A DNA stretch of 35,057 bases from a virus: IMG/VR virus record IMGVR_UViG_3300035196_000195, positions 1-35,057 of that record, one strand, 5' to 3'. Shown in pieces: positions 24,393-28,240 of this stretch. The translations under genes and the position numbers were made by a program. The notes beneath the pieces were generated by a model, which saw only the letters and a list, made by a program, of their open reading frames with translations, was not told where the DNA came from and searched no databases. How positions within the stretch are numbered: the stretch's first letter is position 1; each line of letters starts with the position of its first letter.

Positions 24393-24797
24393 ATGAAGAA
24401 TTTATTATTACTAATGTTCTTATTTATTACTATCTCTTTGAATGCACAATCATCAACAGATAAGTATGAAACTTTTAAGACTTCTTTGGAAGGAATGTCT
24501 TTGGTAGATTATGCTGTACAACAAGAGCGTAGATTTGAAAAGTCAGGAAAGACAAAATTATTGAAAGGGAGACTTCTTGTTTTGACTGGTGTTGCTTTAG
24601 GCGTAATGGGTGCGGTGGGATTATCAGAATTAAGTGGTGTCCCATCAGGAAAAGGGAAGGAGATTGATACTGGTGTTGCAATTGGTGCTATGGCTCTTGG
24701 TAGTATGGCATTTACTGTTGGACTAGCAAATATTACAATAGGCAAAAAGGATTATCGAGAATCTAAAAGAATGCTAAAGAACGGCTTTAAATTTTAA
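24393..24797 (+). CDS. Exported membrane protein, possible holin/spanin partner
   Basis: The 134-residue product has a signal peptide (MKNLLLLMFLFITISLNAQ) and, after a charged region, two Gly-rich hydrophobic segments (LLVLTGVALGVMGAVGLSEL and GVAIGAMALGSMAFTVGLAN) separated by a short loop, ending in a basic tail. Placed 37 bases after the lysozyme it may be a lysis membrane component, but the cleavable signal is unusual for a holin. Envelope protein of another kind is equally possible. Confidence 0.6.
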   Translation: MKNLLLLMFLFITISLNAQSSTDKYETFKTSLEGMSLVDYAVQQERRFEKSGKTKLLKGRLLVLTGVALGVMGAVGLSELSGVPSGKGKEIDTGVAIGAMALGSMAFTVGLANITIGKKDYRESKRMLKNGFKF

Positions 24798-24984
24798 AGC
24801 AACTGACTCAGTAATTTGAACTCTCTCAGTAGCAGAGGAAATTACAATGAGGGGAACAGACCAGATGTAAGGCGTAGGCTGGTCACTTTTAGTAACTGAC
24901 AAAGTAAAAAACTCTCAGAGCTTACTCTTATAGATACTCCGAAGTGATAACTAGAAAGCAGGTATAGTCCTGAAGTCAGTTGCT
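24798..24984 (+). ncRNA. Structured RNA closed by an 11-bp stem
   Basis: AGCAACTGACT (24798-24808) pairs perfectly with AGTCAGTTGCT (24974-24984), followed by TTTTT. Inside are a GTAATTT/AAATTAC stem with an inner CTCT/AGAG, a GACCAG/CTGGTC hairpin, an ACTTT/AAAGT hairpin and a CAGG/CCTG hairpin. This multibranch shape, 187 bases long, with no open frame, is a distinct RNA beginning 1-2 bases after a stop codon. No known family was recognised. Confidence 0.6.
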
Positions 24985-24996
24985 AATTTTTAATAT

Positions 24997-25385
24997 GGGG
25001 GCGACATGGAGAGACTGGGTTTTAAATTTATACGAACATGTAGTGGAAAGCTTATTAACCACTTAAATACTAATAAGTAAAACATAATTGCTAATACAAT
25101 TAACAAAGCAGAGGTAAGTAACGCTATTGCGAATAATTTACTGACTGCAACCTATGTATCTCCTAGAACGCAAGTTTTGGAAGCAGCATAGTAATTCTTT
25201 TTTCTCATTTTTGTTTGAAGTAAAAATGAGATGGTGGAAGTTAACTTCGGTTAGCCCTGGGGAATTGATAATCCCCACAATATGAGGTTGGAACACCTTG
25301 TTTAGCTAGTCACTTAATGACTAAACATGTATAATTTGTATTTTGGAAAATTGTCTGGACCTGGGTTCAAATCCCAGCACCTCCA
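24997..25385 (+). ncRNA. ssrA: tmRNA (transfer-messenger RNA)
   Basis: A 389-base RNA with tmRNA architecture. The tRNA-like ends pair GGGGGCG with CACCTCC, including the G3-U pair recognised by alanyl-tRNA synthetase. A T-arm CTGGG-TTCAAAT-CCCAG precedes the 3' end. Helix 2 is suggested by the segments near 25024 and 25328. A pseudoknot follows: AGTGG/CCACT (25042-46, 25059-63) interlocked with CTTATTA/TAATAAG (25051-57, 25071-77). Twelve bases later a GCT resume codon (25090) opens a 33-codon tag frame starting ANTINK and ending QVLEAA, stopped by TAG TAA. Downstream stems include CTCATTTTT/AAAAATGAG. It would rescue stalled ribosomes and tag the products. Confidence 0.82.
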
Positions 25386-25488
25386 CAAATCCCAAAAAAT
25401 CAGGTTAACCCACGCCTGAGTGAGGAGAAGTAATACATAGAAAATCTTCTCCTCACAATTTTATTAATTAATAATTCAATCTAAAGTC

Positions 25489-25680
25489 ATGCGAGAAAGT
25501 AAAATACCTAATAATAGAGATGTTCTTACTCCTGATGATGTAAGGGATATTAAAAAGAGATTACGATACCCTTATCACGGGATTAATAAGAAAATAGCTG
25601 AAGAGTACGGAGTAAATCCTGTTACTATATCAGATATTAGAACTAAGAAGAGGTGGTCTCACATTAGAATACCTTATTGA
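25489..25680 (+). CDS. Small helix-turn-helix protein
   Basis: The 63-residue product contains LTPDDVRDIKKRL then INKKIAEEYGVNPVTISDIRTKKRW, a textbook helix-turn-helix (helix, turn at YGVN, recognition helix PVTISDIRTKK) like those in phage regulators and in DNA-binding domains of homing nucleases. Here it stands alone inside the RNA island. It could regulate the surrounding units or be the remnant of a nuclease. Start context AAAGTCATG is typical here. Confidence 0.75.
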   Translation: MRESKIPNNRDVLTPDDVRDIKKRLRYPYHGINKKIAEEYGVNPVTISDIRTKKRWSHIRIPY

Positions 25681-25708
25681 TTTATCTTCTCCCCTAAGAA
25701 GTATTTAT

Positions 25709-25753
25709 GTCCACTTTAAAAGGCAACGATAACGGAGACGTTGTGTGGTGGAC
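25709..25753 (+). other. Two-tier hairpin, 45 bases
   Basis: GTCCAC (25709-25714) pairs with GTGGAC (25748-25753) and, inside, CAACG pairs with CGTTG, separated by an internal loop. No T-run follows. It sits between the HTH gene and the first tRNA-like element; processing signal or small RNA are both possible. Confidence 0.5.
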
Positions 25754-25781
25754 TTATTGATTGGTAGCATTTTAATATGCA

Positions 25782-25851
25782 ATCTTAGTAACTCAACAGG
25801 TAGAGTAGTCCCTAGCGGGATTAGTTATGGGTTCAACTCCCATCTAAGATA
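25782..25851 (+). tRNA. tRNA-like element with 4-base anticodon loop
   Basis: The acceptor (ATCTTAG/CTAAGAT), D-arm (ACTC...GAGT) and T-arm (ATGGG-TTCAACT-CCCAT) are perfect, discriminator A. The anticodon arm is three bases short: GTCCC-TAGC-GGGAT. No normal seven-base loop with T33 can be drawn, so no decoding assignment is made. A degenerate tRNA gene or a non-decoding tRNA mimic. Confidence 0.6.
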
Positions 25852-25854
25852 CAA

Positions 25855-25916
25855 TTGAGAGATTATGATAAAGTATATCATATCGTACTGAAAGCTAGCT
25901 AGTTAAAGTCTCTCAA
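25855..25916 (+). ncRNA. Small stem-closed RNA between tRNA-like elements
   Basis: TTGAGAGA (25855-25862) pairs with TCTCTCAA (25909-25916) and encloses an ATGATA/TATCAT hairpin and the palindrome CTAGCTAG. It begins three bases after one tRNA-like element and ends 12 before the next. tRNA-sized but lacking a T-loop. Confidence 0.45.
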
Positions 25917-25928
25917 GAATAAACTTTT

Positions 25929-26081
25929 GCGTAGAAGCATGAAGGACAGGAATATGTTTGAAATGGAATTTATAAAATAAGAAGTAGTTGCAACTAATTC
26001 TAATTGAAGTTTTCCTATTTAGTATTCCGTTATGCATCACCGTTAAGGTGAAGATTGTAGGTTCGACTCCTATCTACGCTA
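25929..26081 (+). tRNA. tRNA-like element interrupted in the D-loop
   Basis: Ends match a tRNA: GCGTAGA/TCTACGC acceptor, D-stem GCAT/ATGC (25937-40 and 26032-35), T-arm GTAGG-TTCGACT-CCTAT. Between the D-stem strands lie 91 bases instead of about 8. A stem GGAATA/TATTCC (25949-54, 26023-28) closes the extra segment; removing about 83 bases (25946-26028) would give a D-loop GAAGGGTT and a 70-base RNA. The anticodon arm TCACC-GTTAA-GGTGA has only five loop bases, so the codon read is unclear. Confidence 0.55.
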
Positions 26082-26090
26082 CAATAAAAA

Positions 26091-26162
26091 CCAGGTAGAT
26101 ACCCGTAACTCTTAGGAGTTGACAAGATGTTACGTTAGAGTATGGTGTCAGGGTCTATCTGG
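26091..26162 (+). ncRNA. Stem-closed RNA ending in a T-run
   Basis: CCAGGTAGA-TACCC pairs with GGGTCTATCTGG (one bulge, one G-T pair), followed by ATTTTTA. The interior can form GTAAC/GTTAC or the alternative hairpin AACTC-TTAG-GAGTT, so it may switch. It is tRNA-sized without a T-loop. May act as a terminator or as an independent RNA. Confidence 0.5.
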
Positions 26163-26174
26163 ATTTTTAAATAT

Positions 26175-26317
26175 GGGGGTATAGCTCAGTTGGTAGAGCA
26201 CCTGTCTTATAAGCAGGAGGTCGTAAAGGGTTTCTTAAACTTTATAACGTGAACGAAGTTGAGGTATATGCTGAAGTACAAAGTGTATACACCTGGGTTC
26301 GAGTCCCACTATCCCTA
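26175..26317 (+). tRNA. tRNA-Ile(TAT) with 70-base insertion in T-stem
   Basis: The 5' part is canonical: acceptor GGGGGTA, D-arm GCTC...GAGC, anticodon arm CCTGT-CTTATAA-GCAGG (anticodon TAT), variable loop AGGTC and one further G (to 26223). The 3' part TGGG-TTCGAGT-CCCAC-TATCCCT-A resumes at 26294. Removing 26224-26293 restores GTGGG/CCCAC exactly and a 73-base cloverleaf. The insert has hairpins (GTTT-CTT-AAAC) and an AGGTATA/TATACACCT stem at its 3' boundary. Confidence 0.72.
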
Positions 26318-26322
26318 CAAAA

Positions 26323-26403
26323 TGCGTGATTGTATAATATACTGGATAATTTGCTCTTAGTTCTAGGTGGAGAGAAAGTGGTTCGATTCCACTCAGTCAT
26401 GCA
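26323..26403 (+). tRNA. tRNA-like element, 10-bp acceptor
   Basis: TGCGTGATTG pairs with CAGTCATGCA over ten bases (7-bp acceptor plus three more). T-arm AGTGG-TTCGATT-CCACT is perfect. The D-arm has only AAT/ATT. The anticodon arm can be drawn as CTCTTAG-TTCTAGG-TGGAGAG, with T33 and a CTA anticodon, but the inner pairs are poor (A-G mismatch). Anticodon assignment is therefore tentative. Confidence 0.5.
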
Positions 26404-26435
26404 AAATAAAATAAATTAAATTAAATCAAATTAAA

Positions 26436-27610: not shown

Positions 27611-28240
27611 ATGGCGAATTCAGAAATTATCAAAGAAGTAATTGCAGGTGCAGTTACAGTTTCAAGAGTGTATGTTAGTGACTTCCAAAAAGAAGGAACT
27701 CTTACTGCTGAGTTGAAACAAAAAATCACTACTAACACTACATACCCAAGTAAGAGAGTTACAAATTCTCTTGATGGAAATGTATTTAGTACTGAAGAGT
27801 TTGGGTTTGAGGCTTCAGAGCCTTTTGTTAATCATGAGACTAGAGTAGCTTGGATTGATGTTCCTGTAGGAACTTCAATTGAGGGAGTTGTTGCTAAATT
27901 GGCAGGAGCACCAGGAGCTTGCTTATATCGTATCATGGATAATAAACCTGTTATCTCTGACAATCAGCAGGATGCAATCAGCAATCCTGAAAGAAATGTC
28001 ACTCTTGACACATTTTCAAATAGACAAGCAGTACGTTACCCAATGGGGCATACTAATGAAGGAAAGTTAGCAATCCATTCAAGTGGCAAAGTTCAGTACA
28101 GAAGAATAGCCTTCTCTGCTACAGCTAAGAACGATGTTGATAATCGGAATGCTGATTTGGATTATGGTTATGTTTCGGCAGAATTACAAGCAGAAGTGGA
28201 TAACACAACTGTGACAGTAATTGCGGAACAACAGTTATAA
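27611..28240 (+). CDS. Conserved hypothetical protein of replication region
   Basis: The 209-residue product (MANSEIIKEVIAGAVTVSRV...) is soluble, beta-rich and slightly acidic, with KQKITTNTTYPSKRVTNSLDGNVFS and a terminal NTTVTVIAEQQL. It lies directly before the Dda-like helicase and is followed by a strong terminator, suggesting high expression. A single-strand-binding or replication accessory role fits the place, but no OB-fold signature is clear. Confidence 0.62.
   Translation: MANSEIIKEVIAGAVTVSRVYVSDFQKEGTLTAELKQKITTNTTYPSKRVTNSLDGNVFSTEEFGFEASEPFVNHETRVAWIDVPVGTSIEGVVAKLAGAPGACLYRIMDNKPVISDNQQDAISNPERNVTLDTFSNRQAVRYPMGHTNEGKLAIHSSGKVQYRRIAFSATAKNDVDNRNADLDYGYVSAELQAEVDNTTVTVIAEQQL

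What the first reader, a model, noticed from the sequence alone, without database searches (positions are those of the whole stretch)
24798..26410. A 1.6-kb island devoted mostly to RNA
Within 1.6 kb there is one 63-residue gene; the rest is one tmRNA, four tRNA-like elements and at least three other stem-closed RNAs laid end to end with short spacers. Such density implies one long precursor cut into many RNAs, or a system built around them with the HTH protein as its only protein part.
Basis: partly seen in the sequence, partly recalled or inferred. Interest (0 to 1): 0.72.

Follow-up and report, generated by a model that had tools for sequence, protein, structure and literature searches.

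The report
Phage tmRNA with altered tRNA-like RNAs
A crAss-like phage of the Flavobacterium-phage lineage carries, in 1.6 kb, a ribosome-rescue RNA (tmRNA) followed by four tRNA-like RNAs that look unable to decode; the tmRNA is a conserved but unannotated feature of this lineage, while the role of the tRNA-like RNAs is untested.

Summary
On the + strand, 24798-26410 holds one tmRNA, four tRNA-like elements and one 63-aa gene, nearly end to end. The window is a crAss-like phage close to Flavobacterium phage Fpv1. A tmRNA just upstream of the same gene (phrog_16309) was found in about half of 46 related IMG/VR records, and tmRNA 3'-end matches lie in all 29 cultured Flavobacterium phages; none is annotated in the records inspected. 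Its long tag is conserved and ends in AA/VA. The four tRNA-like elements are aberrant: a 4-nt anticodon loop; a ~100-nt insert; a 71-nt variable-loop insert; a 10-bp acceptor without a clear D arm. Similar aberrant elements lie near tmRNA, or at its site, in several relatives. One such family shows compensatory changes at 8 of 21 pairs (0/500 shuffles). The 'other stem-closed RNAs' are weak: helix number is near chance, the outer stem of the first loses pairs in the only close relative, and one hairpin is replaced there. The HTH protein looks like a leftover homing-endonuclease DNA-binding domain, absent from the other relatives, so it is not the system's protein. A single processed precursor is plausible but untested.

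The parts
24889..24986 (+).
   Evidence: TTAGTAACTGAC/GTCAGTTGCTAA; z -2.5, same fold in the close relative; the wider 24798/24984 stem loses pairs there
24997..25388 (+). tmRNA (one-piece)
   Evidence: RF00023 83 bits; ARAGORN; G3:U70 kept as in relatives; C6xA67 acceptor mismatch, absent from L003
25090..25194 (+). tmRNA tag reading frame ANTINKAEVSNAIANNLLTATYVSPRTQVLEAA, then TAG TAA
   Evidence: ARAGORN; same peptide in the close relative although the frame's DNA differs at three positions
25405..25460 (+). E2: strong hairpin (11 bp) behind the tmRNA
   Evidence: z -5.6; one substitution in 72 nt against the relative
25489..25680 (+). 63-aa HTH protein, resembling an HNH homing-endonuclease C-terminal domain
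   Evidence: phrog_517, phrog_59, phrog_20467; 50% identical to the end of an ORF holding an HNH-like motif in L083; 98% identical in L003
25706..25757 (+). E3: hairpin that is exchanged for an unrelated larger hairpin in the close relative
   Evidence: z -3.3; 50% divergence block with conserved flanks
25782..25853 (+). T1: cloverleaf with normal acceptor, D and T arms but a 4-nt anticodon loop
   Evidence: Rfam tRNA 50.7 bits; ARAGORN tRNA-???; fold
25855..25916 (+). E5: possible stem-closed RNA between T1 and T2
   Evidence: 10-bp closing stem; z -1.9; identical in L003
25928..26081 (+). T2: acceptor and T arm with about 100 nt of long stem in place of a D arm, and a small hairpin in place of the anticodon arm
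   Evidence: T-arm scan and fold; z -2.9; identical in L003
26086..26166 (+). E6: stem-closed hairpin RNA between T2 and T3
   Evidence: z -3.1 to -3.6; one substitution in L003
26175..26317 (+). T3: tRNA-like (anticodon TAT by position) with about 71 nt inserted in the variable region
   Evidence: Rfam tRNA 50.8 bits with a 70+ nt insertion
26323..26403 (+). T4: 10-bp acceptor and T arm, no convincing D or anticodon arm (ARAGORN calls it Pyl-like, CTA)

Best explanation
This is the tmRNA locus of a crAss-like phage lineage, in which RNA cassettes gather around a phage tmRNA gene. Mechanism I think most likely: the locus is transcribed with the neighbouring genes as one + strand RNA; host RNase P and RNase Z recognise the tmRNA and the acceptor/T-arm units T1-T4 and cut at them, releasing the tmRNA, T1-T4 and the short hairpin RNAs between them. 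The tmRNA is charged with alanine by the host enzyme (G3:U70), uses host SmpB (none was found in the phages) and tags proteins on stalled ribosomes with a phage-specific tag ending in AA/VA. T1-T4 come from tRNA genes by loss or insertion in the anticodon and variable regions; they are kept as non-decoding tRNA mimics, most likely to occupy or absorb host factors that bind the acceptor/T-arm half (SmpB, EF-Tu, processing or tRNA-cutting enzymes). Shown: presence, conservation of the tmRNA and its tag, aberrant tRNA-like elements in several relatives, covariation in one such family. Inferred: single transcript, cutting, charging, and every statement about the function of T1-T4.
For: tmRNA; RF00023 in 21 of 46 related records over the cut-off and in 2 more at E about 5e-16; 3'-end match in all 29 cultured Flavobacterium phages, with no feature annotated under the matches listed. 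Tags of relatives share ...AQVQANMxVVxNIL... and end in AA or VA. No SmpB in 21 phage records, control rings in 10 of 14. T-arms 38 against 0.6 expected. Aberrant tRNA-like elements in L039, L045, L046, L054, L055, L063, L069. The L039/L054/L055 family changes both sides of 8 of 21 pairs, 100% paired, 0/500 shuffles, slid controls at most 2. T1-T4 block 5 differences in 609 nt against 16 in 628 fourfold sites of downstream genes between window and L030. No + strand terminator inside.
Against: No expression or processing data. T1-T4 themselves have only one homologue, 99% identical, so covariation cannot be tested on them; in T1 one of two differences turns a G:U pair into a mismatch. Free decay of tRNA genes after insertions would look similar. 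The window tmRNA carries an acceptor mismatch and scores below L003 (83 against 98.8 bits).
Confidence: 0.5

Rival explanations
1. Only the tmRNA is functional; T1-T4 are decaying phage tRNA genes disrupted by insertions and deletions, and the stem-closed pieces are chance hairpins in AT-rich intergenic DNA.
For: Helix number near chance and folding z like the rest of the window; E1 outer stem and T1 anticodon stem lose pairs in L003 and E3 is replaced; canonical tRNAs exist elsewhere in the window, so the odd ones could be wrecks.
Against: Four wrecks in a row would all have to keep T arm and acceptor pairing; similar non-standard elements recur in relatives, one family under compensatory change; the block is less diverged than fourfold sites nearby.
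Confidence: 0.3
2. T1-T4 are anti-defence tRNAs: altered anticodon and variable loops make them uncuttable substitutes or decoys for host tRNA-cutting defences, as T5 tRNA-Tyr with its distinctive variable loop is against retron-Eco7.
For: The alterations sit in the anticodon loop (T1) and variable loop (T3), the sites cut by PrrC-like and PtuAB/Septu nucleases (PMC11555353, PMC13096335); a homing-endonuclease relic lies in the cluster, as SegB does beside T4/T6 tRNA genes.
Against: Known evading tRNAs still decode; T1 cannot carry a standard anticodon loop and T2/T4 lack normal arms. No defence system tested against this phage.
Confidence: 0.12
3. Part of the RNAs are spliced: T3 and T2 are tRNAs interrupted by introns and become normal after removal.
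For: Removing about 71 nt from T3 would leave a normal-looking tRNA (sequence); a group I intron endonuclease is annotated in FpV4.
Against: Rfam group I and group II models do not match even at E 5; the insert is far too small for known group I introns and lies in the variable region.
Confidence: 0.05

Closest known systems
Phage-encoded tmRNA (for example phage Melnitz; 402 of 18,146 phage genomes surveyed, PMC9004378)
   Same: A lytic phage carries its own ssrA; same RNA type with a proteolysis-type tag
   Different: One-piece, crAss-like phages of Bacteroidota, long conserved tag, fixed place upstream of phrog_16309, flanked by altered tRNA-like RNAs
Phage tRNA clusters and tRNA-rich regions (T4, T5)
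   Same: Several tRNA-type units in one direction, homing-endonuclease DNA nearby
   Different: T1, T2 and T4 cannot decode in any standard way and T3 carries a large insert; normal tRNAs lie elsewhere in the window
GOLLD and ROOL RNAs near phage tRNA genes (PMC12286853)
   Same: Structured RNA of unknown role beside tRNA-type genes in phages
   Different: No Rfam match; units are 50-160 nt, not one RNA of several hundred nt
HNH homing endonucleases (phrog_59, phrog_20467)
   Same: The 63-aa protein matches their C-terminal DNA-binding part
   Different: No HNH catalytic part in the window protein

Membership tests
tmRNA (RF00023) | Covariance-model match over the whole length | tested here: met
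   1-374 of 374, 83 bits, cut-off 47
tmRNA (RF00023) | Tag reading frame ending in a protease signal with stop | tested here: met
   ...QVLEAA then TAG TAA
tmRNA (RF00023) | Alanine identity pair G3:U70 | tested here: met
   GGGGGCG/CACCTCC gives G3:U70; kept in the relatives listed whose acceptor sequences differ
tmRNA (RF00023) | SmpB partner available | not testable with these tools
   No phage copy in 21 records; a host copy is expected, as for other phage tmRNAs, but the host genome is not held
Decoding tRNA (T1) | 7-nt anticodon loop | tested here: not met
   Loop TAGC, 4 nt, in window and L003
Decoding tRNA (T2, T4) | D arm and 5-bp/7-nt anticodon arm | tested here: not met
   Folds
Decoding tRNA (T3) | Variable region of 4-24 nt | tested here: not met
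   Insert of about 71 nt; the anticodon arm itself is normal
tRNA-type acceptor/T-arm unit (T1-T4) | T stem with TTCRANY loop joined to an acceptor stem | tested here: met
   T2 acceptor is 6 bp or 7 bp with a U:U end, T3 has a C:C at one end of its T stem
Group I or group II intron | Rfam intron model match | tested here: not met
   None at E 5
GOLLD / ROOL | Rfam model match | tested here: not met
   None
HNH homing endonuclease (63-aa protein) | HNH catalytic motif | tested here: not met
   63 aa, aligns only to the C-terminal part
Single processed precursor | Discrete mature 5' and 3' ends | not testable with these tools
   no RNA data

The most novel reading that the evidence does not exclude
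The lineage has a new class of phage RNA: non-decoding tRNA mimics made beside a phage tmRNA and acting with or against trans-translation (for example holding SmpB or EF-Tu, or steering ribosome rescue to the phage tag), with cassettes swapped between phages at the tmRNA locus.
Probability: 0.22. Interest if true: 0.82.

Novelty: new variant of a known kind. Interest (0 to 1): 0.55.

Why it matters
It adds a conserved, unannotated tmRNA to a crAss-like lineage with cultured members (Flavobacterium psychrophilum phages), so phage-encoded ribosome rescue can be tested directly. It also shows tRNA-like RNAs under pairing constraint that lack normal anticodon parts, a kind of phage RNA that ordinary tRNA finders miss or mislabel, and whose role (processing marks, decoys, rescue factors) is open.

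Tried and rejected
Sequence homologues of E1-E6 and T1-T4 beyond L003: none (blastn, nhmmer; two exact-pattern scans of IMG/VR; phages and plasmids gave only short tRNA-type matches). A scan of GTDB genomes for the flanking gene gave nothing. Intron reading: no Rfam match. Outer E1 stem: loses pairs in L003. General excess of structure: rejected. Amber-suppressor reading of T4 (CTA): not pursued, as the arm is poor and TAG is an ordinary stop in this phage (4 of 29 genes). A Bacteroidota-type promoter match at 25927 inside T2 has a long spacer and such matches occur by chance. A shared flank of tmRNA and T3 (15 of 18) with 74% identical 3' ends suggests exchange between them but is AT-rich and may be chance. 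The literature searches listed no paper on tmRNA function in crAss-like or Fpv phages.

Full report
What the window is. The 35-kb window is a virus record. Its major head protein is 72% identical to that of Flavobacterium phage Fpv1 over the full length, and also matches phages of Bacteroides, Cellulophaga and uncultured crAss-like records. The close relative IMGVR_UViG_3300030105_002498 (93 kb; loci L003/L030) holds the same island.

Check of the observation. A tmRNA (24997-25388), four units with a T arm and acceptor stem, and a 63-aa gene lie on the + strand within the given span. T arms with a paired stem and standard loop number 38 in 33 related sequences against 0.6 in Markov simulations, and nearly all lie on the + strand and belong to tmRNAs, normal tRNAs or the units discussed here. 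The further 'stem-closed RNAs' are less secure: the island has 9 strong helices against 6.2 in shuffles and folds no better than the rest of the window. Singly, 25405-25460, 25706-25757 and 26086-26166 are stable, with boundaries chosen after seeing the stems.

The tRNA-like units. T1 is a normal cloverleaf but for a 4-nt anticodon loop. T2 has acceptor and T arm with a long stem of about 100 nt in place of the D arm and a small hairpin for the anticodon arm. T3 is a normal tRNA with about 71 nt inserted in the variable region. T4 has a 10-bp acceptor stem and T arm and no clear D arm; ARAGORN's Pyl label is not convincing. The other tRNAs of the window (Arg, His, Met, Tyr) are normal.

Relatives. 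A search with the flanking gene phrog_16309 (27611-28240) gave 46 records. RF00023 matches over the cut-off in 21, and in two more at E about 5e-16. In the ten relatives read in detail, the tmRNA ends 278-2118 nt before this gene. The 29 cultured Flavobacterium phages match the tmRNA 3' end, with no feature annotated under the matches listed; Fpv1, FPSV-S29 and FpV4 show gaps without annotated RNA there, and the full tmRNA was confirmed by covariance model in Fpv1. The tags of the relatives share a core (A-Q-V-Q-A-N-M..V..N-I-L) and end in AA or VA; the window's tag is more divergent, but three DNA differences from L003 within the frame leave its peptide unchanged. G3:U70 is kept while other acceptor pairs change. 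None of 21 records tested encodes SmpB, so host SmpB must serve.

Aberrant tRNA-like units near tmRNA, or at its place, occur in L039, L046, L054, L055, L063 and, without a tmRNA match in the record, L045 and L069. Those of L039, L054 and L055 are one family: an almost invariant core of about 60 nt with a hairpin and no anticodon arm, while the acceptor stem sequence has been exchanged with pairing kept: 8 of 21 pairs change on both sides, 100% paired, no shuffle of 500 reaches this, slid controls give at most 2. In L054 and L055 the unit starts within about 3 nt of the tmRNA's 3' end. Three sequences are few, but the signal is strong.

Modularity. Between window and L003 three blocks differ at 34-50% (tmRNA 5' end, a 3' pseudoknot region, hairpin E3) amid DNA that is mostly 96-100% identical. 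The window's tmRNA 5' block leaves a C6xA67 mismatch with its own 3' strand that L003 lacks, a possible mark of recombination. Fpv1 and L039 differ by an insertion before and a replacement behind the tmRNA. In L033 the gene of 96 aa lies before the tmRNA, in the window behind it, and the DNA match of the 191-aa gene agrees. So the locus appears to exchange RNA cassettes and has moved relative to its neighbours.

The protein. The 63-aa protein matches the end of HNH endonucleases and is 50% identical to the end of an ORF with an HNH-like motif in an unrelated phage contig. It is missing from all other relatives. It is best read as a homing-endonuclease relic kept as a small DNA-binding protein.

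Mechanism. Best reading: one transcript, cut by host RNase P and Z at tRNA-type units, yields a working phage tmRNA, non-decoding tRNA mimics and small hairpin RNAs. Steps shown: sequence, conservation of tmRNA and tag, pairing constraint in one relative family. Steps inferred: transcription unit, cutting, charging, function of the mimics. Main rival: decaying tRNA genes beside a functional tmRNA. Five differences in 609 nt of the T1-T4 block against 16 in 628 fourfold sites of downstream genes lean against free decay, weakly. Evading tRNA-cutting defences is possible: such enzymes cut the anticodon or variable loop, and a phage tRNA with a distinctive variable loop resists (PMC13096335, PMC11555353).

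Known context. Phage tmRNAs are known but uncommon, 402 of 18,146 genomes in one survey (PMC9004378). GOLLD and ROOL are structured phage RNAs near tRNA genes (PMC12286853); nothing here matches them. Verdict: a new variant of a known kind, with an open and testable question about the tRNA mimics.

Noticed in passing
L007 39382-39796 (Fpv1, minus strand), L084, L086: Cultured Flavobacterium phages have a tmRNA that is not annotated in the records inspected, inside CDS-poor gaps of about 1-2 kb with further stable stems and a possible pseudoknot (Fpv1 locus near 40480-40350).
   Followed up: partly
L069 8690-9870 (L025 7700-8870): A second RNA-rich stretch behind phrog_16309 in a relative: a tRNA with about 95 nt inserted near the anticodon, a normal tRNA-Pro and long-stem pieces, no tmRNA.
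   Followed up: partly
L042 6598-6960, L046 2907-3240: About 300 nt between tmRNA and phrog_16309 share blocks among several relatives (such as GTTCTGGRATAGTG), perhaps another structured RNA or leader.
   Followed up: no
L022 411-479: RAGATH-1 hammerhead ribozyme match above cut-off in a related phage.
   Followed up: no
window 24393-24797: The 134-aa gene before the island is missing at that place in L003; only its first 33 residues (a signal-peptide-like start) resemble another L003 gene.
   Followed up: no
window 24984-25001 and 26162-26179: tmRNA and T3 share the sequence before and at their 5' ends (15 of 18) and 74% of their last 42 nt, a hint of exchange between them.
   Followed up: partly
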